Assembly (NCBI RefSeq): GCF_011044175.1
Contig: NZ_CP049057.1
Coordinates: 1 to 64,000, forward strand
Origin: Rasiella rasia
Lineage (GTDB): Bacteria; Bacteroidota; Bacteroidia; Flavobacteriales; Flavobacteriaceae
Length of the DNA: 64,000 bases
Direction: 5' to 3'
Below are positions 35,907-55,697 of this stretch, piece by piece (position 1 is the stretch's first letter; every line of letters begins with the position of its first letter). The notes below the pieces were generated by a model. The model did not search any database. It was not told the origin of the DNA and worked only from the letters and a program-made list of their open reading frames with translations. The position numbers and the translations under genes were made by a program.

Positions 35907-35973
35907 GCAGAAGCTTCTAGGTGCTTATCCCGCCGCATTGCGGGATCTTAAACCCAGAATCATATAGTAATAG

Positions 35974-36007
35974 AAAATCCCCAATCTGTTTAAGGTTGGG
36001 GATTTTT
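35974..36007 (+). terminator. rho-independent terminator of dnaK
   Basis: AAAATCCCCAA pairs with TTGGGGATTTT around an 11-base loop and runs into a T-rich tail (TTTTTGTTTTTTG). A second small hairpin, CCCGC-N6-GCGGG, sits just before at 35929-35944. Confidence 0.85.
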
Positions 36008-36172
36008 GTTTTTTGCGGTGCTGCTAAAAGATGTATCTTTAGGGTAACCGCTACATAAAGAATAGGCTGCCCTGGCTGTGTATTGGGATAAAGGCTATAC
36101 AATTGATGTTGTGAGAAGTTGGCATTTATTGCTAATAAAATTTGGTAATTAATAAGTTTAGAAATCAATTCT

Positions 36173-39100
36173 ATGAAAACGAAAGATTTATTTCTTGATC
36201 AATTTGATCCGAAAATTAAAAGTGAAATAATTGAATTTGGAAAACGGCTAAATTCTATGAATGCTGACGTTTTTATACTGATGGCGCGAAAAGCTGCCTG
36301 TTTCATAGATTGTCTTCAAGAACTAAATCTCACCAGCTTAGATGGTTTTATTACATCAGAAAGGATATTAGATTTAGACACAAAATGGTTAAAAGGAAAA
36401 AGAATAGCGATTATTGATGATACAATTATTTCTGGTACGACCTTATTTAAAACTATCAATAAATTAAAAAAAGTAAACGTAGAAAATATTTCTGTTTCCG
36501 TACTTACGGTAGATAAAGAGCATTTTGTTGAAGATTTACTTATTAATGACGATACTCAAGAAAGTTATCTTTTAGAACCATATTTAAAGTTGTCACATAC
36601 CGAATGTATTAAGGTATGTTCAGATATCGTAAACGCTTTATCAATATTTCCAAGACCTTACAATGTTGACTTCCCATATATCAGTAAAGTAAACATCTTA
36701 GAAAATGATTTTATAAGATTTGTACAACTCACTAATTGGACGTTAGAGGACGGAACGTCGTACCTTCAAAACAGGCATAACACCTTCACATATTCATTTA
36801 CTCCAAATTTCAGCCTTGAGGACGAATTTGATCAATTACTCGGTATAAAAGCATCTAAATTTGCAATGCTAAAAATAAGAGCATTTGGGAAATATTTAAA
36901 AAAAGATAAGAATTCTTATATATTAAAAATACTCCCAGTTGTAGTTTTAAAGCCATTAAGTTACAACAATATCGATGACCTATTTGAATCGATTAAGATG
37001 ATTAATAGTGATGACACTTTTAATCAGATAAAGACCAAATCATCAAAACTACGATTTATACAATATTTTTTAGCCTCTATACTTGCGGAGTTTTGGGTAA
37101 ATTCTATCTCGAAATTTATAAATGCAAAAGTTGAAATAAATCATGATGTCTCGTCACTAAGGCTACTTTATAATCAAGATATTATTTCTTCGTTCTTGAA
37201 ATTAATGAAAGTCAAAACTGTTCCAGTGCTTTTAAATGACATTCATTTAGAACCTGACGAAATTAACATCGATAATCTTGACTATATTCCCCATAATAAA
37301 CGCGATGATGAAAATGTTGAATCAATACATTTATTATTAACCGAGCCATTTCTTAGATTGTATCATGAGAAGGAAAAGAAAGCATGGGAGACTGTAAAAA
37401 AGTATGGCCGTAACGTCTTTGAAAATCCTGAATATATAAAACTAGTAAATCGTCTGGAGAAGGGATTTTCCTTGTCTTTCTTAATAAAACTATTAGATTT
37501 TTCTGAGGATATAAACTCCGCTAAAATCGTTTCATCATTCTTAGACAAGGCTATTGATATCGGAATAGCAGTTCCTATAATTGTTGACGATTCAGAGGAA
37601 AAACTCATCTATAGAGCCTATAGACATGGAGAAGATGTCCCTTTCGGAGAAAAAGAGGAAAAACTTTTAGCCATAGTAATTAAAGCTTTTTCGGAATCAC
37701 TAGGAAGTGAGAACTTACAGCACATTTGGTTAGAAAAACTTACTGTGTTGTTATTAAAAATTGGCATACAAAATAAATTTCTCAATCCAATTATAACAAA
37801 TATTCCCCAAAGGGATACTATAACTTCAAAAAAGGGTCATTTAACTGCTGTTGCTTCTATTAAATCATATCTTTATGGACCTGTGGCAACTTTCAAAGAA
37901 TATGAAATCGGCGAATCAATTAATTCCAAACCTTTCCTAGAACCCGGGGAAAAAGATTTATGGCTATCTAATGTACTTTTAGAAAAAGGAATAATTATCA
38001 AAGAACCAATCAAAAATCTATACAGATTTAATCAGTTTCCTAATATCTCGTTAGATGAAAAACTTGAAGGAAAAGCTGAAAATATTGGATTGGTGTTTGG
38101 AGAATTAATGAAGAAGAAAATAATTTCAAAAGACAATGATTTAGTGAAACTGACAGCCTGTGTTTATCCCCAAGATTGTCTACAATCTTTGGCAGCAGAA
38201 ATCAACATCTTCAACAAGAAATGGAGATATTATCAGCAATATTTAGAACGAAATTTTCATAATAAAAAAATGCATTATCAATTAGCTGAAGGGGTTAGAA
38301 ATTCAAATCTGGCCTTTACAGCTATCAATAGCGGCCAACAAAAATTCTTTTGGTTCATTGAAAAAGATGCCTTGAAATTAATTGATCATATTAAAAATAT
38401 TATCGAGCCAAAATATTTGAAGAATATATGGGCAGAATTTTGGTCTCCAAATAAAGATTGGAATATAGAATCAATTGATAAAGATCTTTATAAAGGCATA
38501 ATTAATCAAGGACTATGGCTTATTTCAATGAACAGTTATTTGAGGATTTTAGACTATAGTCTTAGAAATACTGCTATTCCAGAAGGTAAAATTCAAATTA
38601 ATAAAAACAATAATCTAAAAAATAAGAGGTTTGAAGAAATTAAGGAGTATCACAAAAAGCTTACAAAATATAAATCAAATAAACGGACTCGAGAAATTAT
38701 ACCATTCGTCGAAAGTTTAATCAATAAAAGAAATGAGCTTTCTGAAACTGACCACTTGGCAAATATTAAAATAGTTTTAACTAAAATTAGAAGTTTAGTA
38801 AATAACTCAAAGGTATTATTGGACAACACAGATCTACTCGTAAATAAATTTGGAAAAATTGAAAATATTCAGAGGTTTAACCACACATTATATATCGACA
38901 TTGATGAAAGTTCATTTTTTTTAAAAAAAAGAGTCTGGAAAGAAATTTTTGACTTCATCGATCAATATAAAATAGACCTAAATAATTCTGAAGACCAGGA
39001 AGATTTAATTATTCAAATACCACATGACAAAAACGTGCTAGAACGAGGAGTATGGTTTGCTTCGAATGGTTCACTTAGCTCTACCACCTTAGTAGATTTA

Positions 39101-40255
39101 GTGCATAAAATTATCGAAAAATTCACATCGACTTTAAAAGTTAAATGCGTAATATTCGGACAGTTACCTGAAGACTTTAGAATAAAGACAGCTGGAACAA
39201 ATAGTTCGAATATTAAATTCGGTAATTTTTGGACACAAGTTTCGCTGTTATCTGAATTTTTTACTATAGATTTTCAGAAAAATATCGAAGAAAGCGAATT
39301 AATTTCGTTAATAGAAAATAAAGAAATTCTAAACTCGGAGTTCAACAAATTATTGGAACCAGAAAAATATCAATATGAATTACGTTCTTCGCTAGAAATT
39401 AAGGATCAAGGTGTTTTTAATAACAATTTTATCTACGAACAATATATATACTCAAGCAAGATGACCAAAGAAAACGCAGACATAGGTGTTATTACTGTTG
39501 TAACTCACGAAACAAGGGCTGTTTTAAAGCATCTACGAATAAATCCAAAAAATGATATTTTAAAAAACGGACGATCCTTCTATGAAGGTGTTACAGAGGC
39601 TTCTGAAAAGGGAATACATAAAATTGTTGTAACTCAGCAATTAGATATTGGAAATAGATCAGTTATCCCTGCATATAATGCTCTAGTAAACACTTATCGA
39701 CCAAAATTAATTATTTTACTTGGTATAGCAGGAAGCATTTCAAAAGATCTTGAACTTTGCGATGTGGTGATTGCAAATCAGGTTATTTATTACGAGAATA
39801 GAAAGGAAGTCCCTAATAAAACAAATCGGAGGGGCGAAATGTATAAAATTGAAGTAAAGCTAAAACAAGTTATCAATAAATTTTTTGTAATACATAATGA
39901 GCCGGCAGTTTTCAAGGCAGAAAAAGATTCTTTAAATGAGGATTTTCAAATTTTGACTGGTCCTATTGGAAGCGGAGAAGCTGTAATTGCAGATAATGCA
40001 TCAAGTATAAAAGAATGGTTGCTTGAAGTTAACTCTAAGACCCTTGCGCTCGAAATGGAAGCTGGAGGGTTTCTACAAGCATTTTATGAAGATGGATTAT
40101 CCGAATTTCAACCCATTCATGGAGTTTTAGTCATTCGTGGTATTTCTGACCATGCCGATTTTGAAAAAGATGATAAATGGAGAAAACCAGCTTCTGAAAA
40201 TGCCGTTAAATGCTTATCGGAAATTTTAAAAATTATTCCCGAATTCGAAATATAA
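36173..40255 (+). CDS. phosphoribosyltransferase-like / nucleoside phosphorylase fusion, candidate conflict-system protein
   Basis: This 1360-residue protein has no family that I recognise over its whole length. Residues about 25-150 look like a type I phosphoribosyltransferase: DVFILMARK (32-40), then IIDDTIISGTTL (80-91), the PRPP-binding loop. Residues about 165-1095 are AT-rich-coded, mostly helical, and unlike any domain I know. Residues about 1103-1356 are a PNP/MTAN-type nucleosidase fold: LLGIAGSISKDLELCDVV, GPIGSGE, EMEAGG (1294-1299) and RGISDHAD with the catalytic aspartate kept. PRTase and PNP domains recur in nucleotide-centred conflict systems, so an anti-phage or nucleotide-depleting role is inferred only. 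It opens the accessory island after dnaK. Confidence 0.75.
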   Translation: MKTKDLFLDQFDPKIKSEIIEFGKRLNSMNADVFILMARKAACFIDCLQELNLTSLDGFITSERILDLDTKWLKGKRIAIIDDTIISGTTLFKTINKLKKVNVENISVSVLTVDKEHFVEDLLINDDTQESYLLEPYLKLSHTECIKVCSDIVNALSIFPRPYNVDFPYISKVNILENDFIRFVQLTNWTLEDGTSYLQNRHNTFTYSFTPNFSLEDEFDQLLGIKASKFAMLKIRAFGKYLKKDKNSYILKILPVVVLKPLSYNNIDDLFESIKMINSDDTFNQIKTKSSKLRFIQYFLASILAEFWVNSISKFINAKVEINHDVSSLRLLYNQDIISSFLKLMKVKTVPVLLNDIHLEPDEINIDNLDYIPHNKRDDENVESIHLLLTEPFLRLYHEKEKKAWETVKKYGRNVFENPEYIKLVNRLEKGFSLSFLIKLLDFSEDINSAKIVSSFLDKAIDIGIAVPIIVDDSEEKLIYRAYRHGEDVPFGEKEEKLLAIVIKAFSESLGSENLQHIWLEKLTVLLLKIGIQNKFLNPIITNIPQRDTITSKKGHLTAVASIKSYLYGPVATFKEYEIGESINSKPFLEPGEKDLWLSNVLLEKGIIIKEPIKNLYRFNQFPNISLDEKLEGKAENIGLVFGELMKKKIISKDNDLVKLTACVYPQDCLQSLAAEINIFNKKWRYYQQYLERNFHNKKMHYQLAEGVRNSNLAFTAINSGQQKFFWFIEKDALKLIDHIKNIIEPKYLKNIWAEFWSPNKDWNIESIDKDLYKGIINQGLWLISMNSYLRILDYSLRNTAIPEGKIQINKNNNLKNKRFEEIKEYHKKLTKYKSNKRTREIIPFVESLINKRNELSETDHLANIKIVLTKIRSLVNNSKVLLDNTDLLVNKFGKIENIQRFNHTLYIDIDESSFFLKKRVWKEIFDFIDQYKIDLNNSEDQEDLIIQIPHDKNVLERGVWFASNGSLSSTTLVDLVHKIIEKFTSTLKVKCVIFGQLPEDFRIKTAGTNSSNIKFGNFWTQVSLLSEFFTIDFQKNIEESELISLIENKEILNSEFNKLLEPEKYQYELRSSLEIKDQGVFNNNFIYEQYIYSSKMTKENADIGVITVVTHETRAVLKHLRINPKNDILKNGRSFYEGVTEASEKGIHKIVVTQQLDIGNRSVIPAYNALVNTYRPKLIILLGIAGSISKDLELCDVVIANQVIYYENRKEVPNKTNRRGEMYKIEVKLKQVINKFFVIHNEPAVFKAEKDSLNEDFQILTGPIGSGEAVIADNASSIKEWLLEVNSKTLALEMEAGGFLQAFYEDGLSEFQPIHGVLVIRGISDHADFEKDDKWRKPASENAVKCLSEILKIIPEFEI

Positions 40256-40270
40256 CCATAAGCAACAAAA

Positions 40271-40501
40271 TGCCAACAACGTATATAATTTATGGCTTAG
40301 ATGGGTAAACGAATTAAACTTCCTACATTTTTTTACTAACTTGTCAATCGGATAAAACCGGCGAGGCTTGCCATCCGAAACGGCGCTTTTACTCCGGCTA
40401 AATTGAAAAATTCGGCTCAATCAAGCGCTCAACGCTCAATTCGCTTTAGAAATCATAGTCTAGGGTGGATTTCGTAAGAAGGACTCATTAAGCCACCCTA
40501 G
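40271..40501 (+). repeat. attC-like site A, with hairpin
   Basis: TGCCAACAACGTATATAA (40271-40288) opens the 317-bp gap. A TTCCTACATT block at 40320 and an ATCGG block at 40347 are spaced exactly as in site G (58430 and 58457). The right part diverges and holds a perfect 9-bp stem, CTAGGGTGG (40460-40468) with CCACCCTAG (40493-40501). No clear CGTT end was found. Confidence 0.45.
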
Positions 40502-40572
40502 CAAGCAAAGACGCCGCTTAAAACCAATTTTAATCTGTAGCCGTATTTTAGGACGAGACATTTAATAAAACG

Positions 40573-41349
40573 ATGATAAAAGATATTTTTCTATCATTCC
40601 GAGATAATTTCAAAGAAAAGACAACCAATCCATTTTTAGGTACATATTTAATTATTTGGATTATTAGAAATTGGGAATTGGTCTACTCTCTTTTTAATTT
40701 TGATTCAAGCGACACCTTAGAAATTAAGGTGAATTTTATTAAGGAATATTATAAAAACAATTCATTTATTGAAGGTATTTTAAATAATATTCTTTGGACT
40801 TTCGGCGTATTAATAATTACTTTTCTATTACTGAATATTTCTCGTGCAATTGTAAATTTATTTGAAAAGCAACTTAAACCTTGGATATATAAACTAACCG
40901 ACTCAAAATCAGTTGTACTAAAATCAACTTATGAAATTATTAGAAACGAAAGAGATGATTTGCAATTCAGACTTGACAAAGAAAGAGATTCAAAATCAAG
41001 ACTTGAATCAAGAATAAAAACATTGGAAGGAGAAATTTTAGAGCGAGAAAGGGCTGTTGCAGAAAAAGAAGGAGAAGAAAGTATTGAATCAAATAAAAAA
41101 GAAGAGCCTTCTGATTTACAACTCGTATTTAATAAGTTAAATGCTTTAAAGTTAATTGAGGATTTCAAAGAAATGGCTGTTGCATCTAAAAAAGGGGATC
41201 CAATTTCTGTAGTGCACAATTCTGTAGACAAATATCTCGAATATGGACTATTAGAATATAAAGAATCCACATATAGTGGTGATGGGAAATATTATAAAGT
41301 AACACCCGAAGGAGATAAATTACTCAGATATATGAGAAATAATATATAA
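40573..41349 (+). CDS. membrane-anchored coiled-coil protein with winged-helix-like C-terminus
   Basis: I do not recognise a named family. The 258-residue protein has a conserved-looking start (SFRDNFKEKTTNPFLGTYL) and two hydrophobic segments near residues 23-42 and 65-92. A strongly charged coiled coil follows (about 115-170, rich in E, R and K). The last 80 residues (LQLVFNKLNALKLIEDF to LLRYMRN) have the helix-turn and wing pattern of small DNA- or protein-binding domains. It is probably anchored in the inner membrane. It is in its own block, between sites A and B, so a link to the 1360-residue protein is possible but unproven. Confidence 0.7.
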   Translation: MIKDIFLSFRDNFKEKTTNPFLGTYLIIWIIRNWELVYSLFNFDSSDTLEIKVNFIKEYYKNNSFIEGILNNILWTFGVLIITFLLLNISRAIVNLFEKQLKPWIYKLTDSKSVVLKSTYEIIRNERDDLQFRLDKERDSKSRLESRIKTLEGEILERERAVAEKEGEESIESNKKEEPSDLQLVFNKLNALKLIEDFKEMAVASKKGDPISVVHNSVDKYLEYGLLEYKESTYSGDGKYYKVTPEGDKLLRYMRNNI

Positions 41350-41356
41350 AAACTAT

Positions 41357-41488
41357 GCCCAACAATGTATAACCGCAATTACGGCGAATTCGACTACGTC
41401 CGAATCCACTCGGAATTACGAGCGTTAGTACCAAACAGAAAAAAACAACTTAAAACGCATAACTGACGGTTATACAAGACCGTTAACC
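41357..41488 (+). repeat. attC-like site B
   Basis: The site runs GCCCAAC (41357-41363, matching RYYYAAC), two bases, TGTATAACCG (41366-41375), a 91-base centre, CGGTTATACA (41467-41476), then AGAC and CGTTAACC (41481-41488). The 10-bp arms are a perfect inverted repeat. The length of 132 bp equals that of site F. The stop of the preceding gene is 8 bp upstream. Confidence 0.6.
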
Positions 41489-42624
41489 TTCATTACGACT
41501 AACTGACTAATCAGGATGAAATTATTTGAAGCAGTTAAGCATAAATCACTGTTTAAAGTAACTCGTTTTATATGCTAATCCTATCCTTTTTTCCATTAGT
41601 AATACTTCAGGTTTATCTTTTCTTAAACCAACTTGCCAATTATTAAAAATCTCCCAATCATCGTTACTAAAAATTGGGTTTCCATACTGATTCATCAAGG
41701 CTCTTCTAATTCTATCTTCTTCTCCTTTTCCCGTCAAAATCCATACTACATTAAGCTTATTATCTCCAAAACGAGCTTCAATTTTTCTTGGAAACCCCAA
41801 ATAATCTACACCAAAACAGTTTATCTGAATTTGAGCATTGGGATCTGATCCATCTAGTTTTTCTGTATTAGTAAAATTACTACGGGCTTCTAATATTGGT
41901 TTTAATTCGTCAATAGTGGCTCCCATTTTAAGAAATGCCGGAATTTGATCTGAGGAATTAGGCTCGGTTTCGTCTTTATAGCTTAAATCTATATACGGAT
42001 TTTCCCAAGCATATAGATTAGTATGCATTGCTTCTTTTGTCAATATCCAAGCGGCATCCTTGTTTTTATCTAAAAATAACCTATCTGCAACATAGACATC
42101 ATAGTTCAAATATACTCTGGCTGTATCAATACGCTTACTTACAAAAACTTTCTGTACATTCCCCCTTACCTCTATGTATTTAAGCGTGTCGTCGGCAAAT
42201 GTAAATACAACTTTGTCAATTATTCCATTACTAGTCTTTACTTGAGAGCAGACTAAGTGCTCCTCTTTTAATTTTGCTAAGGGAAAGTTTGGATTGTCGA
42301 CCGATATCGTGTCTACTGTTTTAGATATTTCTTTTAATTTTTGAACAGTTTTTTCTAGTGATTCATTCAACTTAACACCATTGAATATTGATTCAGTCTG
42401 TGCATAAAACATGCAAGGTGTAATCAGAAAAATAATTGTGAATATAATTTTATGCAAATTCATAATTGGAAAATTTCTTTATTATTCTATAAGGATATCA
42501 TTAAGCTTGATTGTTACAACATATATAAAAAATAGTAGTTTCAGTACTTAAACGAAAGATAGATAATAAAATAAAGGTCAGTTATAAACCGGAAAGTTAG
42601 TACTTAAAAATCTGCTACTTTTCA
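41481..42624. repeat. 1.14-kb direct repeat, copy 1
   Basis: This block, from CGTTAACC to CTACTTTTCA, recurs at 54192-55336. The only difference I found is one extra T in copy 2. It contains one minus-strand gene and the left part of site C. Confidence 0.95.
41546..42463 (-). CDS. exported protein of unknown function (intact duplicate)
   Basis: The 305-residue protein has a signal peptide (IIFTIIFLITPCMFYAQ) and no recognisable domain. The mature sequence mixes charged and aromatic residues, with a YLNYDVYVADRLF segment in the middle and WILTGKGEEDRIRRALMNQYGNP toward the end. It is the only minus-strand gene in this part of the island. It is intact here; its copy at 54257-55175 has a frameshift. 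It is probably periplasmic or outer-surface; I cannot assign a role. Confidence 0.75.
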   Translation of the reverse strand: MNLHKIIFTIIFLITPCMFYAQTESIFNGVKLNESLEKTVQKLKEISKTVDTISVDNPNFPLAKLKEEHLVCSQVKTSNGIIDKVVFTFADDTLKYIEVRGNVQKVFVSKRIDTARVYLNYDVYVADRLFLDKNKDAAWILTKEAMHTNLYAWENPYIDLSYKDETEPNSSDQIPAFLKMGATIDELKPILEARSNFTNTEKLDGSDPNAQIQINCFGVDYLGFPRKIEARFGDNKLNVVWILTGKGEEDRIRRALMNQYGNPIFSNDDWEIFNNWQVGLRKDKPEVLLMEKRIGLAYKTSYFKQ

Positions 42625-42642
42625 TATACAAAACCGTCGTGT
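42514..42642 (+). repeat. attC-like site C
   Basis: TTACAACATATATAAAAAATAGTAG on the left pairs imperfectly with CTGCTACTTTTCATATAC on the right, and the right end reads CCGTCGTG rather than CGTT. The inner ends GTACTTAA (left) and TTAGTACTTAA (right) also pair. It separates the duplicated gene from the SRPBCC operon. Confidence 0.45.
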
Positions 42643-42753
42643 GCAATGCGGAAAAAACAAATACAGTAAATTGAATTAGATAATCCGTAATCTGCTTAAT
42701 TTCTTTCAATAAAAAGCCTGCAATTTTGTGGTATAAAATCACAAACAATTGAA

Positions 42754-43227
42754 ATGGCAAATTCAAAATTAGTTTCTTTCGAACTTTCACACTTCTATCC
42801 AATTATAGAACTTCAAAAATTCTGGGAGTTTTTCGTTGACCATAAATGGTATTCTCAATCCGAAATTATGGCGGGAGAAATTGTTGTCCTTAAAGAAGGT
42901 AAAGACCACCCACAGGGCTTGGGAGCTGTTAGAAAAATTTTGATTGGAGATATAAATCTTACCGAAGATATTGTTGGTTTTGACCCACCAAATTATTTCA
43001 GTTATGCTGTACACGAAGGAGGTATGCCTGTAAATAAATACAGAGGAGAATTTTTCTACGAATCGAAGAATGGCGGAATGTTATGGAAATACAAAGGAAA
43101 CTTTGAGCCAAAACATTTCGGTACAGGTTGGTTTTTTAAATGGTTTCTAAAATCAAGAATGAAATCACAACTTCCTGTATGGGAGAATGGGTACAATTCT
43201 TATTACAAAACAAGTACTTCACTATGA
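42754..43227 (+). CDS. SRPBCC-family protein
   Basis: The 157-residue protein has the START/Bet v1-like pattern: FELSHFYPIIELQKFWEFFVDHKWYS at the start, RKILIGDINLTEDIVGFDPPNYFSYAV and a closing helix around WFLKSRMKSQLP. Such proteins bind hydrophobic small molecules or act as polyketide cyclases. It is first in a six-gene plus-strand operon. Its TGA stop overlaps the SDR start by 4 bp (ATGA). Confidence 0.8.
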   Translation: MANSKLVSFELSHFYPIIELQKFWEFFVDHKWYSQSEIMAGEIVVLKEGKDHPQGLGAVRKILIGDINLTEDIVGFDPPNYFSYAVHEGGMPVNKYRGEFFYESKNGGMLWKYKGNFEPKHFGTGWFFKWFLKSRMKSQLPVWENGYNSYYKTSTSL

Positions 43228-44168
43228 AATTATTAAACGCAAAGACACGTATTTTACTCAAACTGTTCCTTCCTCAGCGAAAAAAAGCCAATTCTAAATA
43301 TGCAATTCCTGAGTCAGATAAAAATTTGTCTGGGAAAACTATTGTCTTTACAGGTGGAACAGACGGAATAGGTCAAGTAGCTGTTGAAATGCTTTACCAA
43401 ATGAATGCAAATATTGTTTTGTTAGCACGAAATCCCCAAAAAGTCCAGAAGCAAATTAAAGAATTGAAGTTGCCAAAAAGACAAAATACAATAGATTTTG
43501 AAATTTGTGATTTGGCATCTATGAGCAGTGTAAAAGATTGTGCCCATCGTATTTTAAAGAGATACGACAACATAGATGTTCTGGTAAATTGTGCTGGAAT
43601 TAATTCTACCGATAAAGCAGTTAGTAAAGATGGTTTTGAATTGAATTGGGCTATCAATTATTTAGCGCCATTCCTTTTGACCAATCTATTAGTAGAAAGG
43701 CTAAAAGAATCGGCATCTGCTCGCATAGTGAATATCACTACGAACACAGATTTTCTAGAAAAAATCAACTTCGATGAAATTGAAAAACAATCTGATTTTT
43801 CCACCAATGATAATTATTCCGCGTCCAAATTATCTTTAAATATGTTTTCCATTGATTTAGCTGAAAGACTTAAAACTACTGGTGTCACGGTAAATTACCT
43901 CTACCCTGGATACATCAAATCAAACTTATTACGACACCTGAAAGGAGGAGCGAAACTAATGCAATTTATGATGAATATTATGGCATCACCAACCGAAGTG
44001 GGTGCAGACAGAATCCTACGACTAGCCATATCTTCCGAATATAAAGAGGTTACGGGAGTATATGTCGCAGAAGACCAAATTATGCCACCTCATAGCGAAG
44101 CTCAAATTGAATTAAAAAGAGAAAAGCTTGAACAAATTACAGTAAAGGCATTAAAACAATGGTTATAA
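43224..44168 (+). CDS. short-chain dehydrogenase/reductase
   Basis: The 314-residue SDR has the cofactor motif GGTDGIG, the NCAGIN segment and the catalytic YSASK (after NITTNTDFL with S/T). It belongs to the retinol-dehydrogenase/WW-oxidoreductase-like branch by its insert. The real start is the ATG at 43224 overlapping the SRPBCC stop; a longer frame from 43140 adds 28 residues inside that gene. The substrate is unknown. Confidence 0.88.
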   Translation: MKLLNAKTRILLKLFLPQRKKANSKYAIPESDKNLSGKTIVFTGGTDGIGQVAVEMLYQMNANIVLLARNPQKVQKQIKELKLPKRQNTIDFEICDLASMSSVKDCAHRILKRYDNIDVLVNCAGINSTDKAVSKDGFELNWAINYLAPFLLTNLLVERLKESASARIVNITTNTDFLEKINFDEIEKQSDFSTNDNYSASKLSLNMFSIDLAERLKTTGVTVNYLYPGYIKSNLLRHLKGGAKLMQFMMNIMASPTEVGADRILRLAISSEYKEVTGVYVAEDQIMPPHSEAQIELKREKLEQITVKALKQWL

Positions 44169-44208
44169 AATTACAATTGAACAATTTTTAATATAAAACT
44201 CTAATAAA

Positions 44209-44613
44209 ATGAAAAATGTAAAAAGCACTGAAGCTAATAGAGTGTTAGCACAGAAAGTAATAGAAGCAATTAGTAATGATAATTGGGAATATGTAAATGA
44301 AGTTTTTGCAGAAGATGCTATTGTTTGGGTAGCTGGTAGTATGCCAATTTCAGGCACACATACTAAAGATTTTGTAATCGTTGCAGGTAAAAGAACAAGA
44401 GAAGGTTTTCCCGAAGGACTGAGCCTTAAAACAAAAGCTATGACAGTAGAAGGAAGTCGAGTCGCCATTGAAGCCGAATCTCTTGGAAAGCATATTAGTG
44501 GTAAAACCTACAATAATCATTTTCATATTCTAATGGAAATAAAAGACGAAAAAGTTTGTACTTGGAAAGAATATATGGATACTATGCACGCAAATGAGGT
44601 CTTTTTTGGATAA
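44209..44613 (+). CDS. SnoaL-like (NTF2 fold) protein
   Basis: The 134-residue protein has an N-terminal helix pair (RVLAQKVIEAISNDNWEYVNEVFAEDA), VWVAGSMPISGTHTK, and IEAESLGKHISGKTYNNHFH and WKEYMDT strands, which is the SnoaL/NTF2 cone. Members are isomerases, cyclases or binding subunits. It probably shares a pathway with the adjacent SDR, SRPBCC and EthD proteins. Confidence 0.82.
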   Translation: MKNVKSTEANRVLAQKVIEAISNDNWEYVNEVFAEDAIVWVAGSMPISGTHTKDFVIVAGKRTREGFPEGLSLKTKAMTVEGSRVAIEAESLGKHISGKTYNNHFHILMEIKDEKVCTWKEYMDTMHANEVFFG

Positions 44614-44656
44614 ATAATGCAAAGACATTATAAATGCAAATTATTATATTAACAAG

Positions 44657-45562
44657 ATGGAAGAATTTAGAGAGATAAAATCAATTAGTCAGATGCATCA
44701 CCTTTTAGGATTGAACAAGCCTATGCATCCGGCAATTTCATTAGTAAATATGAAGGATGTTAAACTCTCTAAAGAGCTGTTCAATCAAAAATACATCTGG
44801 GATTTTTATATGATTTCTTTAAAATTCGAGAATTGTGAACTTCAGTATGGCAGGCAATACTATGATTTTGAAGAAGGGACTTTAGTCTTTAGTTCACCTG
44901 GACAAGTATTCGAAGCAAAAAAACTACCTGAAACATTAAATGAAAACGGTTGGGCCTTATACTTTCATTCAGATTTAATTCAAAAATCTGATTTAGGCAA
45001 GAACATAAAATCATATGGATTCTTTTCTTATAAGTCCAATGAAGCGTTGCATCTATCGGGAAAAGAAAAGGAAAAAATTTCGCGATGCATTGAGGCAATA
45101 GAAGACGAATGTCAGCAAAATATAGACAAACATAGTCAAACCGTCATTGTTTCTAATTTGGAATTATTACTCAACTATTGTAATCGATTTTACGACCGTC
45201 AATTTTATACGCGAAGTACACACCAACAGGATGTTGTAGAAAAAATCGAAGAATTATTGGTCGATTTCTTTAATTCGGAAAAATCCACACAACAAGGGAT
45301 TCCAACCGTAAAATTTTGTGCAGACCAAGTGAATCTTTCACCAAACTATTTGAGTGATTTACTGAAAAAAGAGACAGGTAAGAATACGCAAGAGCATATC
45401 CATTTTCACCTCATTGAAAAAGCTAAAAATCTATTATTGTCATCAAATGTATCAGTTAGTGGAATTGCTTACGATTTAGGTTTTGAATATCCACAGTCTT
45501 TTGGAACTCTTTTTAAAAAGAAAGTTGGAATGTCACCAAACAAATACAGACAATTAAATTAA
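44657..45562 (+). CDS. AraC-family transcriptional regulator
   Basis: The 301-residue protein has an N-terminal ligand-binding part (PMHPAISLVNMKDVKLS, then FSSPGQVFEAKKLP, cupin-like). Two C-terminal helix-turn-helices follow: VKFCADQVNLSPNYLSDLLKKETG and VSVSGIAYDLGFEYPQSFGTLFKKKVGMSPNKYRQ. It probably controls the operon 42754-46621 in which it lies. The inducer is unknown. Confidence 0.9.
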   Translation: MEEFREIKSISQMHHLLGLNKPMHPAISLVNMKDVKLSKELFNQKYIWDFYMISLKFENCELQYGRQYYDFEEGTLVFSSPGQVFEAKKLPETLNENGWALYFHSDLIQKSDLGKNIKSYGFFSYKSNEALHLSGKEKEKISRCIEAIEDECQQNIDKHSQTVIVSNLELLLNYCNRFYDRQFYTRSTHQQDVVEKIEELLVDFFNSEKSTQQGIPTVKFCADQVNLSPNYLSDLLKKETGKNTQEHIHFHLIEKAKNLLLSSNVSVSGIAYDLGFEYPQSFGTLFKKKVGMSPNKYRQLN

Positions 45563-45580
45563 CTCTAAAGCAAAAAAACA

Positions 45581-45946
45581 ATGGTAAAATATTTAACATT
45601 TGCAAAGCGAAAAGACGGGATGTCTCACGAAGATTTTGCAAACTACTATGCAAACCAACATACACCTTTATGTGTTGAACTTCTTCCTGTTTTAAAAAAA
45701 TGTACCATAAGAAGAAATTTTCTTCTGGGTAACCAGATAATTTACCCGCAAGGCTTTTCAGGTGAATTAGAATATGACGTGGTTACAGAATCAATTTGGT
45801 CTAACCCAGAGGCATTCAATCAATTTCTAGAAGATATTAATAACACGGAAATTCAAGAAAAAATCAATGAAGACGAAAAGAATCTTTTTAAACCAGGCTC
45901 TATTCGAGTAGTTATGGTTGAAGTTTCCGAACATAAAAACGAATAA
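45581..45946 (+). CDS. EthD-domain protein
   Basis: The 121-residue protein has the ferredoxin-like alpha/beta barrel pattern: KYLTFAKRKDGMSHEDFANYYANQHTPLCVELLP, with the conserved YW...H.P-like turn, and a VVTESIWSNPEAFNQFLED segment. EthD-type proteins occur in ether degradation and polyketide tailoring. Here it is the fifth gene of the SRPBCC-SDR operon. Its start lies 18 bp after the AraC gene. Confidence 0.78.
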   Translation: MVKYLTFAKRKDGMSHEDFANYYANQHTPLCVELLPVLKKCTIRRNFLLGNQIIYPQGFSGELEYDVVTESIWSNPEAFNQFLEDINNTEIQEKINEDEKNLFKPGSIRVVMVEVSEHKNE

Positions 45947-45952
45947 CTTGTT

Positions 45953-46621
45953 ATGAAAGTTATAATGACAGGTTCAACTGGTATGGTAGGTAAGGGAGTT
46001 TTGTTGGAATGTATTGATGATGAAACAGTTGAAAAGATTTTATTAATCAACAGAAACCCAATTGACATTTCTCATCCCAAGATAAAAGAAATTTTGCATC
46101 AGGATTTTACAAGTTTCAACAAAATTAAAGTAGAATTCAAAGACTATAATGCTTGTTTTCATTGTATGGGTGTATCATCAGCTGGTATATCTGAAGAAAC
46201 TTATTATAAACTCACTTATACAATTTCTGAAGCACTAGCTAATGCAATTTATAATGTAAATCCTAATATACTTTTTACATATGTTTCAGGTGCAGGAACA
46301 GACAGTTCTGAGCAAGGTTACTCAATGTGGGCAAGAGTAAAGGGCAAAACCGAAAATTTTATTTTAAACAAAGGTTTTAAGGATGCTTATGCGTTTAGAC
46401 CAGGAGTTATTTTACCTGAACGTGGTGTGAAATCTAAAACTAAACTGTACAATTTTTTCTATGTTATCACTAAACCAATATTTCCTTTAATAAAAAGAAT
46501 GAAGTCAGTAACAACCACTTCAAGAATTGGAAGAGCAATGATTAATTTATACCATGACCCTCATCCCTTAAAACATCTTGAAGGAGCTGATATCAACAAG
46601 GTTGCCAAATTAAAAGTATAA
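45953..46621 (+). CDS. NAD(P)-binding Rossmann protein, epimerase-like
   Basis: The 222-residue protein starts MKVIMTGSTGMVGKG, the dinucleotide-binding loop of atypical SDRs, and has YVSGAGTDSSEQGYSMWARVKGKTE with the YxxxK-like region, then AFRPGVILPERG. It resembles the HTATIP2/YwnB-like group of NAD-dependent oxidoreductases. It is last in the operon; its stop is 7 bp before site D. Confidence 0.82.
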   Translation: MKVIMTGSTGMVGKGVLLECIDDETVEKILLINRNPIDISHPKIKEILHQDFTSFNKIKVEFKDYNACFHCMGVSSAGISEETYYKLTYTISEALANAIYNVNPNILFTYVSGAGTDSSEQGYSMWARVKGKTENFILNKGFKDAYAFRPGVILPERGVKSKTKLYNFFYVITKPIFPLIKRMKSVTTTSRIGRAMINLYHDPHPLKHLEGADINKVAKLKV

Positions 46622-46627
46622 AAGTAC

Positions 46628-46757
46628 AGCACACCACAAAGCATATACCCCACGCCTCTTGACATACCTAAAAATTTATTACCTTTCAATTGAATAAATT
46701 TTTGGGTAACCTGTTCTAGTAAATATTGGCGCAGGTCATCTGTGAGAACGTTGTGTG
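46628..46757 (+). repeat. attC-like site D with internal hairpin
   Basis: The left arm CAGCACACCACAAAGCATATA and right end CGTTGTGTG (46749-46757) form a partly complementary pair. Inside, TAAAAATTTATT and AATAAATTTTT make an 11-bp perfect stem (about 46670-46710). It falls in the gap between two plus-strand genes. Confidence 0.45.
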
Positions 46758-46775
46758 TAATTAAAAAATGAAAAT

Positions 46776-47291
46776 ATGGATGTATTAAAACTATCAATCG
46801 AATGGGCAAAAGCCGAAGTATTCTCAACACGTTTCTTTATTTTCTTCGCTATTGGCTTTTTAATCGCAAGTGCTGGATTTTGGCAATTAGGAAAAACAGA
46901 TTTAGCAAAGGCTTATATCATTCCAACATTAGTAGTAGGTATATTACTATTAGTAATTGGCAGCGGTACTAACTACACCAATATTCAAAGAGTTAAACAG
47001 TTTGAAAAGGATTTTAATACCGATGAAACTGCCTTTTATCACTCCGAAATTAAACGTTCTAAAAGCACTTTAAAGCAATTTGCATTTGTATTTAAAGTAG
47101 TTCCAATATTAATTATCGTAGCAGCATTTTTAATTCTAATTATTAATACACCAACTTGGAGAGCAATTAGTGTTACAACCATTTCAATGTTAATTGTCAT
47201 TTTATTAATTGACGGAAATGCACAATCAAGAATTGAGAACTACCACAAAGATTTGAAATTGTTGGACTTAAAAAATGAAATAAAAAAATAA
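46776..47291 (+). CDS. small integral membrane protein, unknown function
   Basis: The 171-residue protein has four hydrophobic segments in two hairpins: near residues 20-35 and 46-62, and near 105-122 and 130-146. A charged tail follows (RIENYHKDLKLLDLK). No family is recognised. It stands alone between sites D and E, so it is probably a one-gene cassette. Confidence 0.65.
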   Translation: MDVLKLSIEWAKAEVFSTRFFIFFAIGFLIASAGFWQLGKTDLAKAYIIPTLVVGILLLVIGSGTNYTNIQRVKQFEKDFNTDETAFYHSEIKRSKSTLKQFAFVFKVVPILIIVAAFLILIINTPTWRAISVTTISMLIVILLIDGNAQSRIENYHKDLKLLDLKNEIKK

Positions 47292-47293
47292 CT

Positions 47294-47363
47294 GCACACA
47301 ACAAAGGCTATATGTCCATGTCGGGCAAAAGCCCGCCACGGCACATAGCCAGACCGTTGGCGG
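47294..47363 (+). repeat. attC-like site E, compact
   Basis: ACACAAC (47296-47302) is followed by GGCTATATGTCC (47306-47317), a central GGGC-AAAA-GCCC hairpin, GGCACATAGCC (47340-47350), AGAC and CGTTGGCGG. The GGCTAT(a)TG / CATAGCC arms pair with one unpaired base, as in the extra-helical bases of attC. Length is about 70 bp, within the attC range. It is the clearest site. Confidence 0.6.
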
Positions 47364-47374
47364 TAATTAGAAAA

Positions 47375-47941
47375 ATGCAAAAATCAGAAATCAAACTAAT
47401 AGAAATCATTGAAAATGATATTTGGATGACTAACATTTTGAAAATTGTTAGAGGTTTAAACTTAAATGATTGTTGGATTGGAGCTGGTTTTGTAAGAAAC
47501 AAAGTTTGGGATGAAAAACATAGAAAAGACAGAACTGAACTTAATGATATTGATGTTATATACTTTGATAAATCAAACGCAAGTAAAAAATATGACTTGC
47601 AAATAGAAAACAAGTTACGAAAACTAAATTCGCATCTAAAATGGTCTGTAAAAAATCAAGCAATAATGCATATTAGAAATGGACACGAACCATATGCTAA
47701 TTGCAATGAAGCAATTTGTTTTTGGCCAGAAACAGCAACTGCAATAGCTGTAAGACTGAATCTTGAAAACCAAATTGAATTTATAGCGCCTTATGGTTTA
47801 GATGATTTGTTTAACCTTATTGTAAGACCAACTCCTAATTTTGATTTAACTATTTACAATGCTAGAATTAAAAATAAAAATTGGAAAGATATATGGAGTA
47901 AATTAAAAATAGAAACCGAACATATAAATAGTTTAAATTAA
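47375..47941 (+). CDS. nucleotidyltransferase-family protein (NTP_transf_9/DUF925)
   Basis: The 188-residue protein has GAGFVRNKVWDEKH, the ELNDIDVIYFD metal-binding segment with DxD, and the C-terminal IYNARIKNKNWKDIW tail. These are the features of the NTP_transf_9 family, whose substrates are unknown. I use the ATG at 47375 because the longer frame from 47312 runs through site E. The Crp/Fnr gene follows 2 bp later. Confidence 0.85.
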   Translation: MQKSEIKLIEIIENDIWMTNILKIVRGLNLNDCWIGAGFVRNKVWDEKHRKDRTELNDIDVIYFDKSNASKKYDLQIENKLRKLNSHLKWSVKNQAIMHIRNGHEPYANCNEAICFWPETATAIAVRLNLENQIEFIAPYGLDDLFNLIVRPTPNFDLTIYNARIKNKNWKDIWSKLKIETEHINSLN

Positions 47942-47943
47942 AA

Positions 47944-48531
47944 ATGAATTCTATTAAAATACAACATCTTCTAGGTTACTTTGAAAATTTTTGGCCAATT
48001 GAAAACTTAACTACTGAAATGTTAAATCAATGTGTACTAGAAAAGAAGCTTAAAAAAAAAGAAAAAATCTTAGTAGAAGGAGAAAATTGCAACTTCTTAA
48101 CTTTTGTGGTTAAGGGCATTTTAAAAACCTATCATATTGACAAAAAAGGAAACCAACACAACCTTCAATTTACTTCCGAAAATAAATGGGTAACAGACTT
48201 TAGTAGTTTATATAATAGTCTTCCTAGTAAACTTAATATTGAGGCTTTAGAAGCTTCTATTATTCTACAAATAAAAAAAGAAGATCTTTTTAATTTATAT
48301 GATAATTCCCCTATGTTCGACAGAAATATGAGGATTATTACAGAGAATGCATTTATTGAACAACAAGAAAGGGTACTTCAGCATATAAGCTCAACTGCTC
48401 ATGAGAGATATCTTTACTTTCTAAATAAATATCCTAATTTGTCAAACCGTATTTCAAACATACAAATTGCTTCATACATAGGTGTAACTCCAGAATTTTT
48501 AAGTGCTATTAGAAAAAAGACAACTATCTAA
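47944..48531 (+). CDS. Crp/Fnr-family transcriptional regulator
   Basis: The 195-residue protein has a cyclic-nucleotide-binding-like barrel (KKEKILVEGENCNFLTFVVKGILKTY, then FTSENKWVTDF) and a C-terminal winged helix (SNIQIASYIGVTPEFLSAIRKK). The arginine of the cAMP-binding phosphate cassette is not obvious, so the ligand is uncertain. A 19-bp palindrome lies 45 bp after its stop, at the promoter of the next gene. Confidence 0.85.
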   Translation: MNSIKIQHLLGYFENFWPIENLTTEMLNQCVLEKKLKKKEKILVEGENCNFLTFVVKGILKTYHIDKKGNQHNLQFTSENKWVTDFSSLYNSLPSKLNIEALEASIILQIKKEDLFNLYDNSPMFDRNMRIITENAFIEQQERVLQHISSTAHERYLYFLNKYPNLSNRISNIQIASYIGVTPEFLSAIRKKTTI

Positions 48532-48575
48532 AGTTAATTTTCTTAAACTATCTTATTGTTTCGCACAAAACAACC

Positions 48576-48594
48576 TTAGTAGTTTTGCTACTAA
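48576..48594 (+). promoter_or_regulatory. palindromic operator overlapping a -7 element
   Basis: TTAGTAG TTTTG CTACTAA is a perfect 7-bp inverted repeat. It contains a TAGTTTTG -7 element (48580-48587), 30 bp upstream of the start at 48618. It is a likely Crp/Fnr or repressor site. Confidence 0.6.
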
Positions 48595-48617
48595 TAATTA
48601 AAACAAATAATTAAAAC

Positions 48618-48923
48618 ATGATAGTAGAAATCACCACTTACAAAACGGCTAAAAATGTAACTCACAAAGAACTTTTAATAGCTTCAAAAGCATTTAACAA
48701 AGATTATTGCTCTAAATGCAGAGGTCTAATTAGTAGACAATTTTTAAAAACAGAAAATGGTTACATGGATATCTTTGTTTGGAAAAGCAAAGAGGCTGTT
48801 GAACACGTTCAAGAAACATTTATGCAAGATACAGATGCCATGAAATTTGCCAGTTTAACAGACGTAAATAGTTTAACAATGAAAAACTATGAAGTTTTAG
48901 AATCTATTAGTTTTAAAAATTAA
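48618..48923 (+). CDS. small alpha/beta-barrel protein, possible antibiotic-monooxygenase-like
   Basis: The 101-residue protein has VEITTYKTAKNVTHKELLIASKAFN at the start, a CSKCRGLISRQFLK pair of cysteines and YMDIFVWKSKEAVEHVQETFM, resembling dimeric alpha/beta barrel (ABM-like) proteins. A function cannot be given. It is the likely target of the adjacent Crp/Fnr regulator. Confidence 0.6.
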   Translation: MIVEITTYKTAKNVTHKELLIASKAFNKDYCSKCRGLISRQFLKTENGYMDIFVWKSKEAVEHVQETFMQDTDAMKFASLTDVNSLTMKNYEVLESISFKN

Positions 48924-48957
48924 AACTTTTATAATGTTGGTATAAAAAACGATTAAG

Positions 48958-49587
48958 ATGATTGAATTTTGGGAAGAAACTTATAGAAATAATGAAAAAA
49001 TGTGGGGAGAAAAACCTACAGACAACTCCTTTACAGTTCTTAAATTATTACAAAAGCAAAATATTAAAAACCTACTAATTCCTGGTTTTGGATACGGGAG
49101 AAATGCAAAGGTTTTTTATGATAATGGAATTGAAGTTACTGGAATTGAAATCTCAAAAACAGCTATCGAAAGAGCCCATAAATATTTTGAAAGTGACGTA
49201 AAAATACACTTTGGCTCTGTTACTAAAATGCCTTTTGACAAAAACCAATATCAATCAATCTACTGCTATTCACTAATTCACCTTTTAAATAAAACCGACA
49301 GAAAAAAATTAATTAAAGATTGCTATACACAATTAGAATATAACGGAGTTATGATTTTTGTGGCATTATCTATAAATGACAAAAGATTTGGAGTAGGAGA
49401 AAAATTAGAACATAACACTTTTTATTCTCCACAAGGACTTAATCTTTTCTTTTATGATGAAGTTTCTATTAAAGAAGAGTTTGGGGATTATAATATTTTA
49501 AAAACAATAGAAATTAATGAACCTTTAAAAAAACCAAATGAAAAACACTGGATGATTATATGTAAGAAAACATCTAAAAACGAATAA
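48958..49587 (+). CDS. class I SAM-dependent methyltransferase (TehB/thiopurine-like)
   Basis: The 209-residue protein begins EFWEETYRNNEKMWGEKPTD, a start shared with TehB-like and thiopurine methyltransferases. It has LIPGFGYGRNAKVFYDNGIEVTGIE as the SAM site, then YSLIHLLNKTDRKKL. The substrate is unknown; detoxification of metalloids or small thiols is possible. It sits 34 bp after the ABM-like gene. Confidence 0.83.
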   Translation: MIEFWEETYRNNEKMWGEKPTDNSFTVLKLLQKQNIKNLLIPGFGYGRNAKVFYDNGIEVTGIEISKTAIERAHKYFESDVKIHFGSVTKMPFDKNQYQSIYCYSLIHLLNKTDRKKLIKDCYTQLEYNGVMIFVALSINDKRFGVGEKLEHNTFYSPQGLNLFFYDEVSIKEEFGDYNILKTIEINEPLKKPNEKHWMIICKKTSKNE

Positions 49588-49623
49588 TCAAAGTGTACAA
49601 ATAATTAATACATTTTAAAAAAA

Positions 49624-49650
49624 TGTCACGTTTTCACTTTTCAAATTGTC
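49624..49650 (+). promoter_or_regulatory. ECF41-type promoter of the sigma gene
   Basis: TGTCACG, 16 bp, TGTC. The ECF41 consensus is TGTCACA-N16-CGTC, so this is one mismatch in each box and exact spacing. The sigma gene starts 27 bp downstream, implying autoregulation. Confidence 0.75.
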
Positions 49651-49677
49651 ATACCTTCAAAACATAATAATTAGATT

Positions 49678-50508
49678 TTGAAAAATTATCACGACATATT
49701 GTTTCCATTCGCATATAACATTCTTGGTTCTTCTGAAGATGCAAAAGATACTATTCAAGATATTCTTGTAAAGTACTTGATAATTGACAAAGAGCATATT
49801 GAGAATGAAATTGGATATTTAATCAAGTCTGTCATCAATCAATCGATTAATGTAAAAAAGAAGAAAAAAGCAATAGCTACAGATAGTATTTGGCTTCCAG
49901 AGCCACTTTCAACCGAAAATGCAGATGACAACATCAATTACAATGAGATTTTATCTTATTCAATGCTTACGCTTCTGGAGAAATTAACAGCAAAAGAACG
50001 TGCTGTTTTTATTTTAAAAGTAGCTTTTGATTATTCTCATAAAGAAATTGCCGAAACCATTGGTTTTACAATTGAAAATTCAAGAAAATTATTAAGTAGA
50101 GCAAAAATTAAACTGAATAATAGCAAAACAAAAAACAATAGTATTCCCAAAAATGAATACCAAAAATTGAAGCAATACATTGAAGCAATGCAAAATGGAA
50201 ACTTGTCTGCTTTAGAAAAACTACTATCTAAAGACATACTACTAGCCGCAGATGGAGGGAAAAACATTAAAGTAGTTAGAGAATTAACAAGCGGTATAAC
50301 AAACACTTCTAAGCTATTACTTTATGTTTATAGAGCCTTTTTAACTGGTTTAGAGATTAAACACACTATCATAAATCACCAACCTGCTATTCTATTTTAT
50401 CAAAATGAGGTACTTAAAAATTGTCAAATATTTGAAATAGAAAAAAATTTGATTGTAAATATTTACTCTATTGTTGATCCAAATAAACTAAAATCACTTT
50501 CCTTATAA
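49678..50508 (+). CDS. ECF41-type sigma factor with SnoaL-like C-terminal domain
   Basis: The 276-residue sigma-70 family protein has an N-terminal region 2 (FAYNILGSSEDAKDTIQDILVKYL) and region 4 (TAKERAVFILKVAFDYSHKEIAETIGF). The linker has the ECF41 motif WLPEP (72-76), and the SnoaL-like tail has DGGK (192-195, ECF41 DGGGK) and DPNKL (267-271, like NPDKL). The tail controls activity without a separate anti-sigma factor. The start is a TTG. Matching promoters precede this gene and the azoreductase gene. Confidence 0.92.
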   Translation: MKNYHDILFPFAYNILGSSEDAKDTIQDILVKYLIIDKEHIENEIGYLIKSVINQSINVKKKKKAIATDSIWLPEPLSTENADDNINYNEILSYSMLTLLEKLTAKERAVFILKVAFDYSHKEIAETIGFTIENSRKLLSRAKIKLNNSKTKNNSIPKNEYQKLKQYIEAMQNGNLSALEKLLSKDILLAADGGKNIKVVRELTSGITNTSKLLLYVYRAFLTGLEIKHTIINHQPAILFYQNEVLKNCQIFEIEKNLIVNIYSIVDPNKLKSLSL

Positions 50509-50512
50509 AATT

Positions 50513-50539
50513 TGTCACGTTTTGTCTTTTGGTTTTGTC
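50513..50539 (+). promoter_or_regulatory. ECF41-type promoter of the azoreductase gene
   Basis: TGTCACG, 16 bp, TGTC, the same boxes and spacing as the sigma gene promoter. ATG is 27 bp downstream at 50567. It defines the azoreductase and cupin genes as likely targets. Confidence 0.75.
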
Positions 50540-50566
50540 ATACTATTGAACATAAATACGCAATAG

Positions 50567-51184: not shown

Positions 51185-51187
51185 TCC

Positions 51188-51694: not shown

Positions 51695-51855
51695 AACTAC
51701 AGAAAAAATAATTGTAGCTGGTAGCATTTGTTGAACTATTGTAATCTATTTTAGTAAACAATAATTGAAAAGTAAATCATTTTAACTTACCTTGAAAACA
51801 AGGTTGAAATTAAGTTTTCTAGTATTTAGATTATTTTATAAACAAATGTACAATC

Positions 51856-52883: not shown

Positions 52884-52948
52884 TACTGTCGTTTTTTTAC
52901 AAAGTATAACACATTGGTTGTTTTTACTTTTGTGAGATAACAAACAAG

Positions 52949-53416: not shown

Positions 53417-53424
53417 ATTGCTAA

Positions 53425-55336: not shown

Positions 55337-55387
55337 ATCTGATTAGCTAGGCTGGATTTATAAAAAGATCGAAAATAAGTTTTTATA

Positions 55388-55410: not shown

Positions 55411-55446
55411 TAATGCAATTGTGCAATAACATAAATTCTTAATCAA

Positions 55447-55680: not shown

Positions 55681-55697
55681 TTTTTTAACTTATAAAG

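What the first reader, a model, noticed from the sequence alone, without database searches (positions are those of the whole stretch)
36173..40255. 1360-residue PRTase-like plus nucleosidase fusion, possible new conflict system
Directly seen: IIDDTIISGTTL (80-91) is a PRPP loop, and GIAGS, EMEAGG and ISDHAD in the last 260 residues are nucleosidase/phosphorylase motifs with the catalytic aspartate kept. About 900 residues between them match nothing I know. Established: PRTase and PNP domains are recurrent parts of nucleotide-centred conflict systems. Inference: an effector (PNP) controlled by a large sensor middle, perhaps degrading or making a nucleotide signal on phage infection.
Basis: partly seen in the sequence, partly recalled or inferred. 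Interest (0 to 1): 0.85.

Follow-up and report, generated by a model that had tools for sequence, protein, structure and literature searches.

The report
Two-enzyme bacterial immune-type fusion protein
A rare, recently acquired 1360-residue bacterial protein joins, through a large unknown middle, two enzyme modules that bacteria use separately to poison their own nucleotide supply during virus attack, so it is probably a new design of anti-phage protein, though nobody has tested it.

Summary
The ORF is real: 36173-40255, + strand, 1360 aa. Residues 1-170 are a type I phosphoribosyltransferase (PRTase) by PRPP loop and by predicted fold. Residues 1104-1352 are a nucleosidase/phosphorylase (PNP) with the MTAN catalytic residues kept (E1113, M1295/E1296, R1322/S1325/D1326). 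Residues 171-1090 match no Pfam, NCBIfam, PADLOC or PDB entry convincingly. It is not a dnaK-linked housekeeping gene. It is absent from four same-genus genomes and from 396 other sampled family genomes, and it opens a 24.5-kb low-GC block that replaces other DNA downstream of dnaK. Only two full-architecture relatives were found (distant Bacteroidota MAGs, 31% identity overall, 50% in the PRTase). One lies beside a PADLOC defence candidate (PDC-S42, 2.9e-122). The PNP groups with defence PNPs (CBASS, Detocs-type, EAD7), apart from housekeeping MTAN, and is not sister to its own relative's PNP (AU p=0.008): apparent effector exchange. The PRTase weakly hits PRTases of retrons III-A and ShosT. 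Best reading: a single-chain abortive-infection protein in which a sensor middle controls an ATP-nucleosidase-type PNP, with the PRTase as second nucleotide-acting enzyme or nucleotide sensor. New variant of a known kind; substrate, trigger and the middle's fold are unknown and function is untested.

The parts
36173..40255 (+). Whole gene, 1360 aa: PRTase + unknown middle + PNP nucleosidase fusion
   Evidence: relatives with the same order L011 9995-14332 (1445 aa, complete) and L008 125-4084 (PNP cut short by a stop near the contig end)
36173..36682 (+). PRTase domain, residues 1-170: PPi-loop position 37-42 (MARKAA), PRPP loop 80-91, invariant PRPYN.DFP at 160-168
   Evidence: PF00156 1.6e-4; PADLOC PRTase_III-A 1.2e-4 and ShosT 0.0035 when scanned alone; AF2 model matches HGPRTs, VIA Z 9.5; 49-54% identical to relatives
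36683..39440 (+). Middle region, residues 171-1089; conserved islands at 389-431, 452-492 (YR.YRHGE) and 656-725 (LT.CV...SLAAE, TAINSG..KF); alpha/beta stretch at about 900-1000
   Evidence: no convincing family or PDB match; 16-37% identity to the relatives; AF2 failed on it, pLDDT 33
39482..40228 (+). PNP nucleosidase domain, residues 1104-1352; E1113, GIAG 1184-1187, M1295/E1296, R1322/S1325/D1326 align with E. coli MTAN catalytic/binding residues
   Evidence: PF01048 3.7e-15 (coordinates); PADLOC PDC-M60C and CBASS 'Effector PN-superfamily' about 1e-21 to 1e-23; alignment and tree
35973..36007 (+). Terminator-like hairpin after dnaK, ahead of the gene
   Evidence: consensus match only; 2 found against 2.4 expected in shuffles
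40573..41349 (+). Next gene, 258 aa: N-terminal hydrophobic segment(s), coiled coil, C-terminal winged-helix-like end; possible accessory, 317 bp downstream
   Evidence: no family match; a relative of its N-terminus sits in a type I R-M operon; partnership with the fusion not shown
36010..60550 (.). Low-GC accessory block downstream of dnaK that holds the gene
   Evidence: GC 0.28-0.33 against 0.36-0.41 before it; no synteny with four same-genus genomes until 60.8 kb (G004) or 63.5 kb (G001)

Best explanation
This is a single-protein immune (abortive-infection) device of Bacteroidota that attacks the cell's own purine nucleotides when triggered. SHOWN by sequence, fold or tree: a type I PRTase fold at the N-terminus; a PNP domain at the C-terminus with the nucleosidase catalytic residues intact, belonging with defence PNPs; a long undescribed middle; horizontal, patchy occurrence. 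INFERRED: the middle (and perhaps the PRTase pocket) senses infection and releases the PNP, which hydrolyses the N-glycosidic bond of an adenine nucleotide, most likely (d)ATP as its Cap17/Detocs relatives do, so that ATP collapses and phage replication stops. INFERRED, less sure: the PRTase is a second active module, as in ShosT and retron III-A, drawing on PRPP or unbalancing purine pools, or preventing salvage of the released adenine, rather than a passive fold.
For: PNP groups with CBASS SAVED-PNP, HNH-PNP-EAD7 and response-regulator-PNP proteins and apart from E. coli Mtn and family MTANs (100/100 split; AU p=0.010 against an MTAN grouping). Plasmid hits of this PNP lie beside CBASS cyclases and response regulators. 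Published activity of such PNPs: (d)ATP degradation (PMC10952713; PMC11249213). PRTase alone hits PRTase_III-A and ShosT; ShosT disturbs purine metabolism (PMC12593503). N-terminal parts are orthologous but the PNPs of window and L011 are not sisters (AU p=0.008), the effector-exchange signature. Relative L011 abuts PDC-S42 (2.9e-122). Patchy, acquired. Housekeeping is covered: two other PNP-family and six other PRTase genes in the genome.
Against: No defence gene was recognised among the window's neighbours scanned. Only three members of the architecture are known, so neighbourhood statistics are impossible. The PADLOC PNP profiles also hit E. coli Mtn, though less strongly (54.6 against 79.7 bits). 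The middle could not be folded, so 'sensor' is inference. The PNP non-sisterhood rests on a 15-row tree with long branches, and the pair was chosen after a BLAST comparison.
Confidence: 0.6

Rival explanations
1. Signal-making variant: the PRTase, or the PNP, produces a nucleotide or base signal that regulates a separate effector, for example the downstream membrane/winged-helix gene 40573-41349.
For: Kaur et al. 2020 proposed that PNP and TIR domains release a base as second messenger in conflict systems (PMC7159879). The next gene has an N-terminal hydrophobic segment and a winged-helix-like end. Retron III-A pairs a PRTase with a winged-helix protein (PMC12548924).
Against: The downstream gene is 317 bp away and is not found beside either relative; its own relatives occur elsewhere, in an R-M operon or by an ABC gene. 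Characterised PNPs of this kind destroy (d)ATP.
Confidence: 0.15
2. Toxin against competitors or a stress-response enzyme rather than an anti-phage effector: the same chemistry, but another trigger such as DNA damage, starvation or competition.
For: The window itself shows no recognised defence island. ShosTA acts through DNA damage and purine imbalance (PMC12593503).
Against: A PADLOC defence candidate abuts L011 and the PNP clade is a defence clade. The chain has no hydrophobic leader at its start, which speaks against a secreted toxin.
Confidence: 0.15
3. Housekeeping or salvage bifunctional enzyme: PNP releases a base that the PRTase recharges with PRPP.
For: The two activities are chemically consecutive (base release, then base + PRPP to nucleotide); both catalytic loops look intact.
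Against: Absent from same-genus genomes and nearly all of the family. Genome already holds two other PNP-family and six other PRTase genes. PNP lies outside the MTAN clade. Does not explain a 900-residue middle. Residue 86 is Ile/Phe where 6-oxopurine PRTases carry their base-contacting Asp (own knowledge of HPRT).
Confidence: 0.07
4. Decaying or inactive gene carried on an island.
For: Relative L008 has its PNP cut short by a stop near the contig end, beside an IS5-type transposase.
Against: In the window the 1360-codon frame is open and all catalytic residues named here are kept.
Confidence: 0.03

Closest known systems
Cap17 / PNP (ATP nucleosidase) effectors of CBASS and Detocs (Rousset et al. 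2023, doi 10.1016/j.cell.2023.07.020)
   Same: C-terminal PNP domain of the same clade with intact nucleosidase residues; expected to degrade (d)ATP.
   Different: No SAVED, response-regulator or kinase part; PNP at the C-end of a 1360-aa chain headed by a PRTase; no cyclase or two-component genes nearby.
ShosTA (ShosT PRTase toxin + ShosA DprA-like antitoxin)
   Same: PRTase as nucleotide-perturbing immune module; weak profile match ShosT 0.0035; purine disturbance reported.
   Different: No DprA-like partner seen; PRTase fused to a 900-aa middle and a PNP.
Retron type III-A (PRTase + winged-helix effector)
   Same: PRTase_III-A is the best PADLOC match of the N-terminal domain (1.2e-4); a winged-helix-like gene follows in the window.
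   Different: No reverse transcriptase recognised among the neighbours scanned and no Rfam hit; single-chain fusion with PNP.
PDC-M60C (PADLOC candidate; here it matches response-regulator-PNP proteins of Detocs type) and PDC-S42
   Same: PDC-M60C: PNP half matches at 1.4e-21. PDC-S42 lies next to relative L011.
   Different: PDC-M60C's receiver half is missing here; PDC-S42 was not found in the window.
Housekeeping MTA/SAH nucleosidase (MTAN)
   Same: Same fold family; nearest solved structures by sequence, 2.7e-5; same catalytic residues.
   Different: Separated from MTAN in the tree (100/100; AU p=0.010).

Membership tests
PNP/UDP phosphorylase superfamily (PF01048) | Domain match over curated cut-off with catalytic E, EME and RxxSD motifs | tested here: met
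   56.4 bits against cut-off 25.1; E1113, E1296, R1322, D1326 aligned
Defence-type PNP (ATP nucleosidase) clade | Groups with CBASS/Detocs/EAD PNPs, not with MTAN | tested here: met
   100/100 split, AU p=0.010; only 15 rows and long branches
Defence-type PNP (ATP nucleosidase) clade | Hydrolyses (d)ATP on infection | not testable with these tools
   needs biochemistry
Type I PRTase | PRPP loop hhhDD...SGTT and PRTase fold | tested here: met
   loop 80-90 invariant apart from positions 86 and 90 in three relatives; VIA Z 9.5, 3.6 A, 131 residues to 5esx; Pfam score itself is below cut-off
6-oxopurine PRTase (HPRT type) | Catalytic Asp of 6-oxopurine PRTases after the DD pair | tested here: not met
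   position 86 is Ile (Phe in L008); the base is therefore unlikely to be handled as in HPRT
CBASS | CD-NTase cyclase gene adjacent and SAVED/other sensor domain on effector | tested here: not met
   only the PNP part of PDLC00759 matches (profile 235-491 of 506); no cyclase among neighbours scanned
Detocs | DtcA kinase, DtcB, and DtcC with receiver + PNP | tested here: not met
   receiver half of PDC-M60C unmatched (profile 134-398 of 407); no kinase or receiver gene among neighbours scanned
ShosTA | PRTase with a DprA-like partner gene | tested here: not met
   PRTase match weak (0.0035); no DprA-like gene among neighbours scanned
Retron III-A | Reverse transcriptase + ncRNA + PRTase + winged helix | tested here: not met
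   PRTase_III-A 1.2e-4, but no RT among neighbours scanned and no Rfam RNA in the window
dnaK-linked housekeeping gene | Conserved beside dnaK in relatives | tested here: not met
   none in 6 relatives' dnaK loci; absent from family sample

The most novel reading that the evidence does not exclude
A stand-alone, one-protein immune system of a new type: a sensor of roughly 900 residues without known relatives that controls two nucleotide enzymes at once, a PRTase consuming PRPP/base and an exchangeable PNP destroying ATP, so that the cell can neither keep nor re-make purine nucleotides; or the PRTase product is itself the ligand that switches the PNP on.
Probability: 0.25. Interest if true: 0.8.

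Novelty: new variant of a known kind. Interest (0 to 1): 0.6.

Why it matters
PRTase and PNP modules are known separately in defence (ShosT and retron III on one side, CBASS/Detocs PNP on the other). I found no report of the two on one chain, within the open-access library searched. If active, the protein would show directly whether destroying ATP and disturbing PRPP/purine salvage are coupled strategies, and its large middle would be a new kind of infection sensor. The apparent exchange of the PNP between otherwise orthologous proteins would make it a clean natural case of effector swapping on a fixed sensor.

Tried and rejected
Housekeeping near dnaK: rejected. Relatives in plasmids, phages and IMG/VR for the N-terminal and middle parts: none. 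A single-sequence scan of genome contigs found nothing; the alignment scan gave L010 and L011; both used few exact peptide patterns, so the count of relatives is a lower bound. More relatives by profile in sampled genomes: only the same two. Hits G343, G971 and G1089 are PRPP-loop matches only and G845 is a weak match broken by stops, not relatives. AF2 on residues 1-1083 failed (mean pLDDT 33), so no fold search was made with it. Sequence search of the PDB with residues 1-1083 gave only an HGPRT loop (0.084) and MTH889 (0.67); the latter would fit an alpha/beta stretch near 900-1000 but is too weak to use. The Streptomyces plasmid operon with the closest PNP (36%) carries no PRTase. The HamA match beside L008 (4.7e-4, 17.5 bits) is too weak to call Hachiman. 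No Rfam RNA and no tRNA in the window. I considered calling the downstream gene a partner and did not: it is not conserved beside relatives.
Full report
OBSERVATION. The 1360-codon frame at 36173-40255 (+) is real and starts with ATG. Pfam finds the phosphorylase superfamily at residues 1104-1352 (3.7e-15) and, below its cut-off, a PRTase stretch at 68-112 (1.6e-4). NCBIfam gives the same picture with no equivalog over cut-off.

PRTase. The stretch 1-180 was aligned with two relatives and folded: mean pLDDT 69, pTM 0.70. Foldseek's first nine rows are PRTases, mostly hypoxanthine-guanine enzymes (best E 1.6e-4). VIA-align gives Z 9.5, 3.6 A over 131 residues to 5esx, and every row shown is an HGPRT-type enzyme. 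The claim 'PRTase-like' therefore stands on fold as well as on the PRPP loop. The residue that is the catalytic Asp in HPRT (own knowledge) is Ile86 here and Phe in L008, so it is not a plain 6-oxopurine salvage enzyme. Scanned alone against PADLOC, the domain's only matches up to 0.1 are retron PRTase_III-A (1.2e-4) and ShosT (0.0035). The PRTase is also the best conserved part of the protein: 49-54% identity to the relatives against 16-37% elsewhere.

PNP. Residues E1113, M1295/E1296, R1322, S1325 and D1326 align with E. coli MTAN E12, M173/E174, R193, S196 and D197 (the roles of these MTAN residues are own knowledge). Nearest solved structures by sequence are MTANs (2.7e-5). PADLOC profiles of the CBASS PN-superfamily effector and PDC-M60C match at about 1e-21 on the whole protein, but a control with E. 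coli Mtn also matches these (54.6 bits against 79.7 for the window domain), so a tree was made. Plasmid relatives of the domain include a CBASS SAVED-PNP protein next to its cyclase, an HNH-PNP-EAD7 protein next to response-regulator-PNP genes, and a PN-superfamily effector near a CBASS cyclase. In a 15-row maximum-likelihood tree all of these, the window and L011 separate from MTAN with 100/100 support, and the window pairs with a Streptomyces plasmid PNP at 100/98. Placing the window with MTAN is rejected (AU p=0.010), and so is making the window and L011 PNPs sisters (p=0.008). Limits: long branches, few rows, and the second pair was tested after a BLAST comparison had suggested it.

MIDDLE. 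Residues 171-1089 match no Pfam, NCBIfam or PADLOC family and no PDB chain at a meaningful level. It is conserved in islands (389-431, 452-492, 656-725). AF2 on 1-1083 with three rows failed (pLDDT 33), so its fold stays unknown. No strongly hydrophobic segment was seen.

RELATIVES. Searches of plasmids, phages and IMG/VR with the N-terminal and middle parts gave nothing. In sampled genomes of the family (397), phylum (395), class (395) and class of the relative (245), only two other full relatives appeared: a Candidatus Kapaibacterium MAG contig (L008/L010; 1319 aa, PNP ending early at a stop 124 bases from the contig end) and a Bacteroidetes RIFCSPLOWO2 MAG (L011; 1445 aa, complete). L011's second gene downstream is PDC-S42 (2.9e-122). 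L008 lies by an IS5-type transposase and a gene with a very weak HamA match.

CONTEXT. None of four same-genus genomes holds the gene. Their dnaK loci, and those of two other family members, carry different genes after dnaK. Synteny with G004 resumes at window 60.8 kb and with G001 at 63.5 kb. GC falls from 0.36-0.41 to 0.28-0.33 between 36 and 60 kb. The gene thus opens an acquired block of about 24.5 kb. Other genes of the block that were scanned are metabolic or regulatory (SDR, AraC, methyltransferase, flavodoxin-like, MarR, beta-lactamase-fold), and none was recognised as a defence gene. Two other PNP-family genes and six other PRTase genes exist in the genome, so salvage does not depend on this protein.

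MECHANISM. Literature: PNP domains of this kind in CBASS, Detocs, pAgo, DRT8 and NLR-like systems degrade (d)ATP, the Detocs one to adenine and ribose-5'-triphosphate (PMC10952713; PMC11249213). ShosT is reported as phosphoribosyl transferase and pyrophosphatase that disturbs purine pools (PMC12593503), and PRTases are the usual effectors of retron III (PMC12548924). A PRTase also occurs in a validated system of the DefensePredictor study (PMC13092281). From these I infer that the window protein is a one-chain abortive-infection factor: middle as sensor/regulator, PNP as exchangeable ATP nucleosidase, PRTase as second nucleotide-acting module or nucleotide sensor. Sensor role, trigger, substrates and anti-phage effect are all untested.

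VERDICT. The architecture was not found in the papers searched, but that library holds open-access papers only. New variant of a known kind.

Noticed in passing
41473-42624 and 54184-55336: A 1153-bp direct repeat, 99.65% identical, containing a secreted-protein ORF (41546-42463) and its shortened second copy (54489-55175), brackets 11.6 kb; it looks like a recent duplication or an element integrated by recombination.
   Followed up: partly
57409-57595 and 60365-60551: A second pair of direct repeats (187 bp, 83%) near the far end of the low-GC block.
   Followed up: no
dnaK-downstream site, about 36000; L020-L025: The DNA directly after dnaK differs in every same-genus genome examined; it may be an integration or rearrangement hotspot.
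   Followed up: partly
40573-41349; L046 7386-8012: Hydrophobic N-terminus/coiled-coil/winged-helix-like protein; a relative of its N-terminus sits inside a type I restriction-modification operon with an extra PD-(D/E)XK gene.
   Followed up: partly
L030 5602-12454 (Agrobacterium plasmid pAtLMG292b): An HNH-PNP-EAD7 protein encoded just before a Detocs-like set (1155-aa protein, response regulator, receiver-PNP protein): two PNP effectors side by side, seen on many Agrobacterium plasmids.
   Followed up: no
L028 5135-7762 (Streptomyces plasmid CP106748): A four-gene operon ending in the closest PNP found (36% identity), with uncharacterised partners; possibly another uncharacterised PNP system.
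   Followed up: partly
L035 1863-5647 (Calothrix plasmid): Two different PNP-family genes close together with an integral membrane protein gene between them, on a mobilizable plasmid.
   Followed up: no
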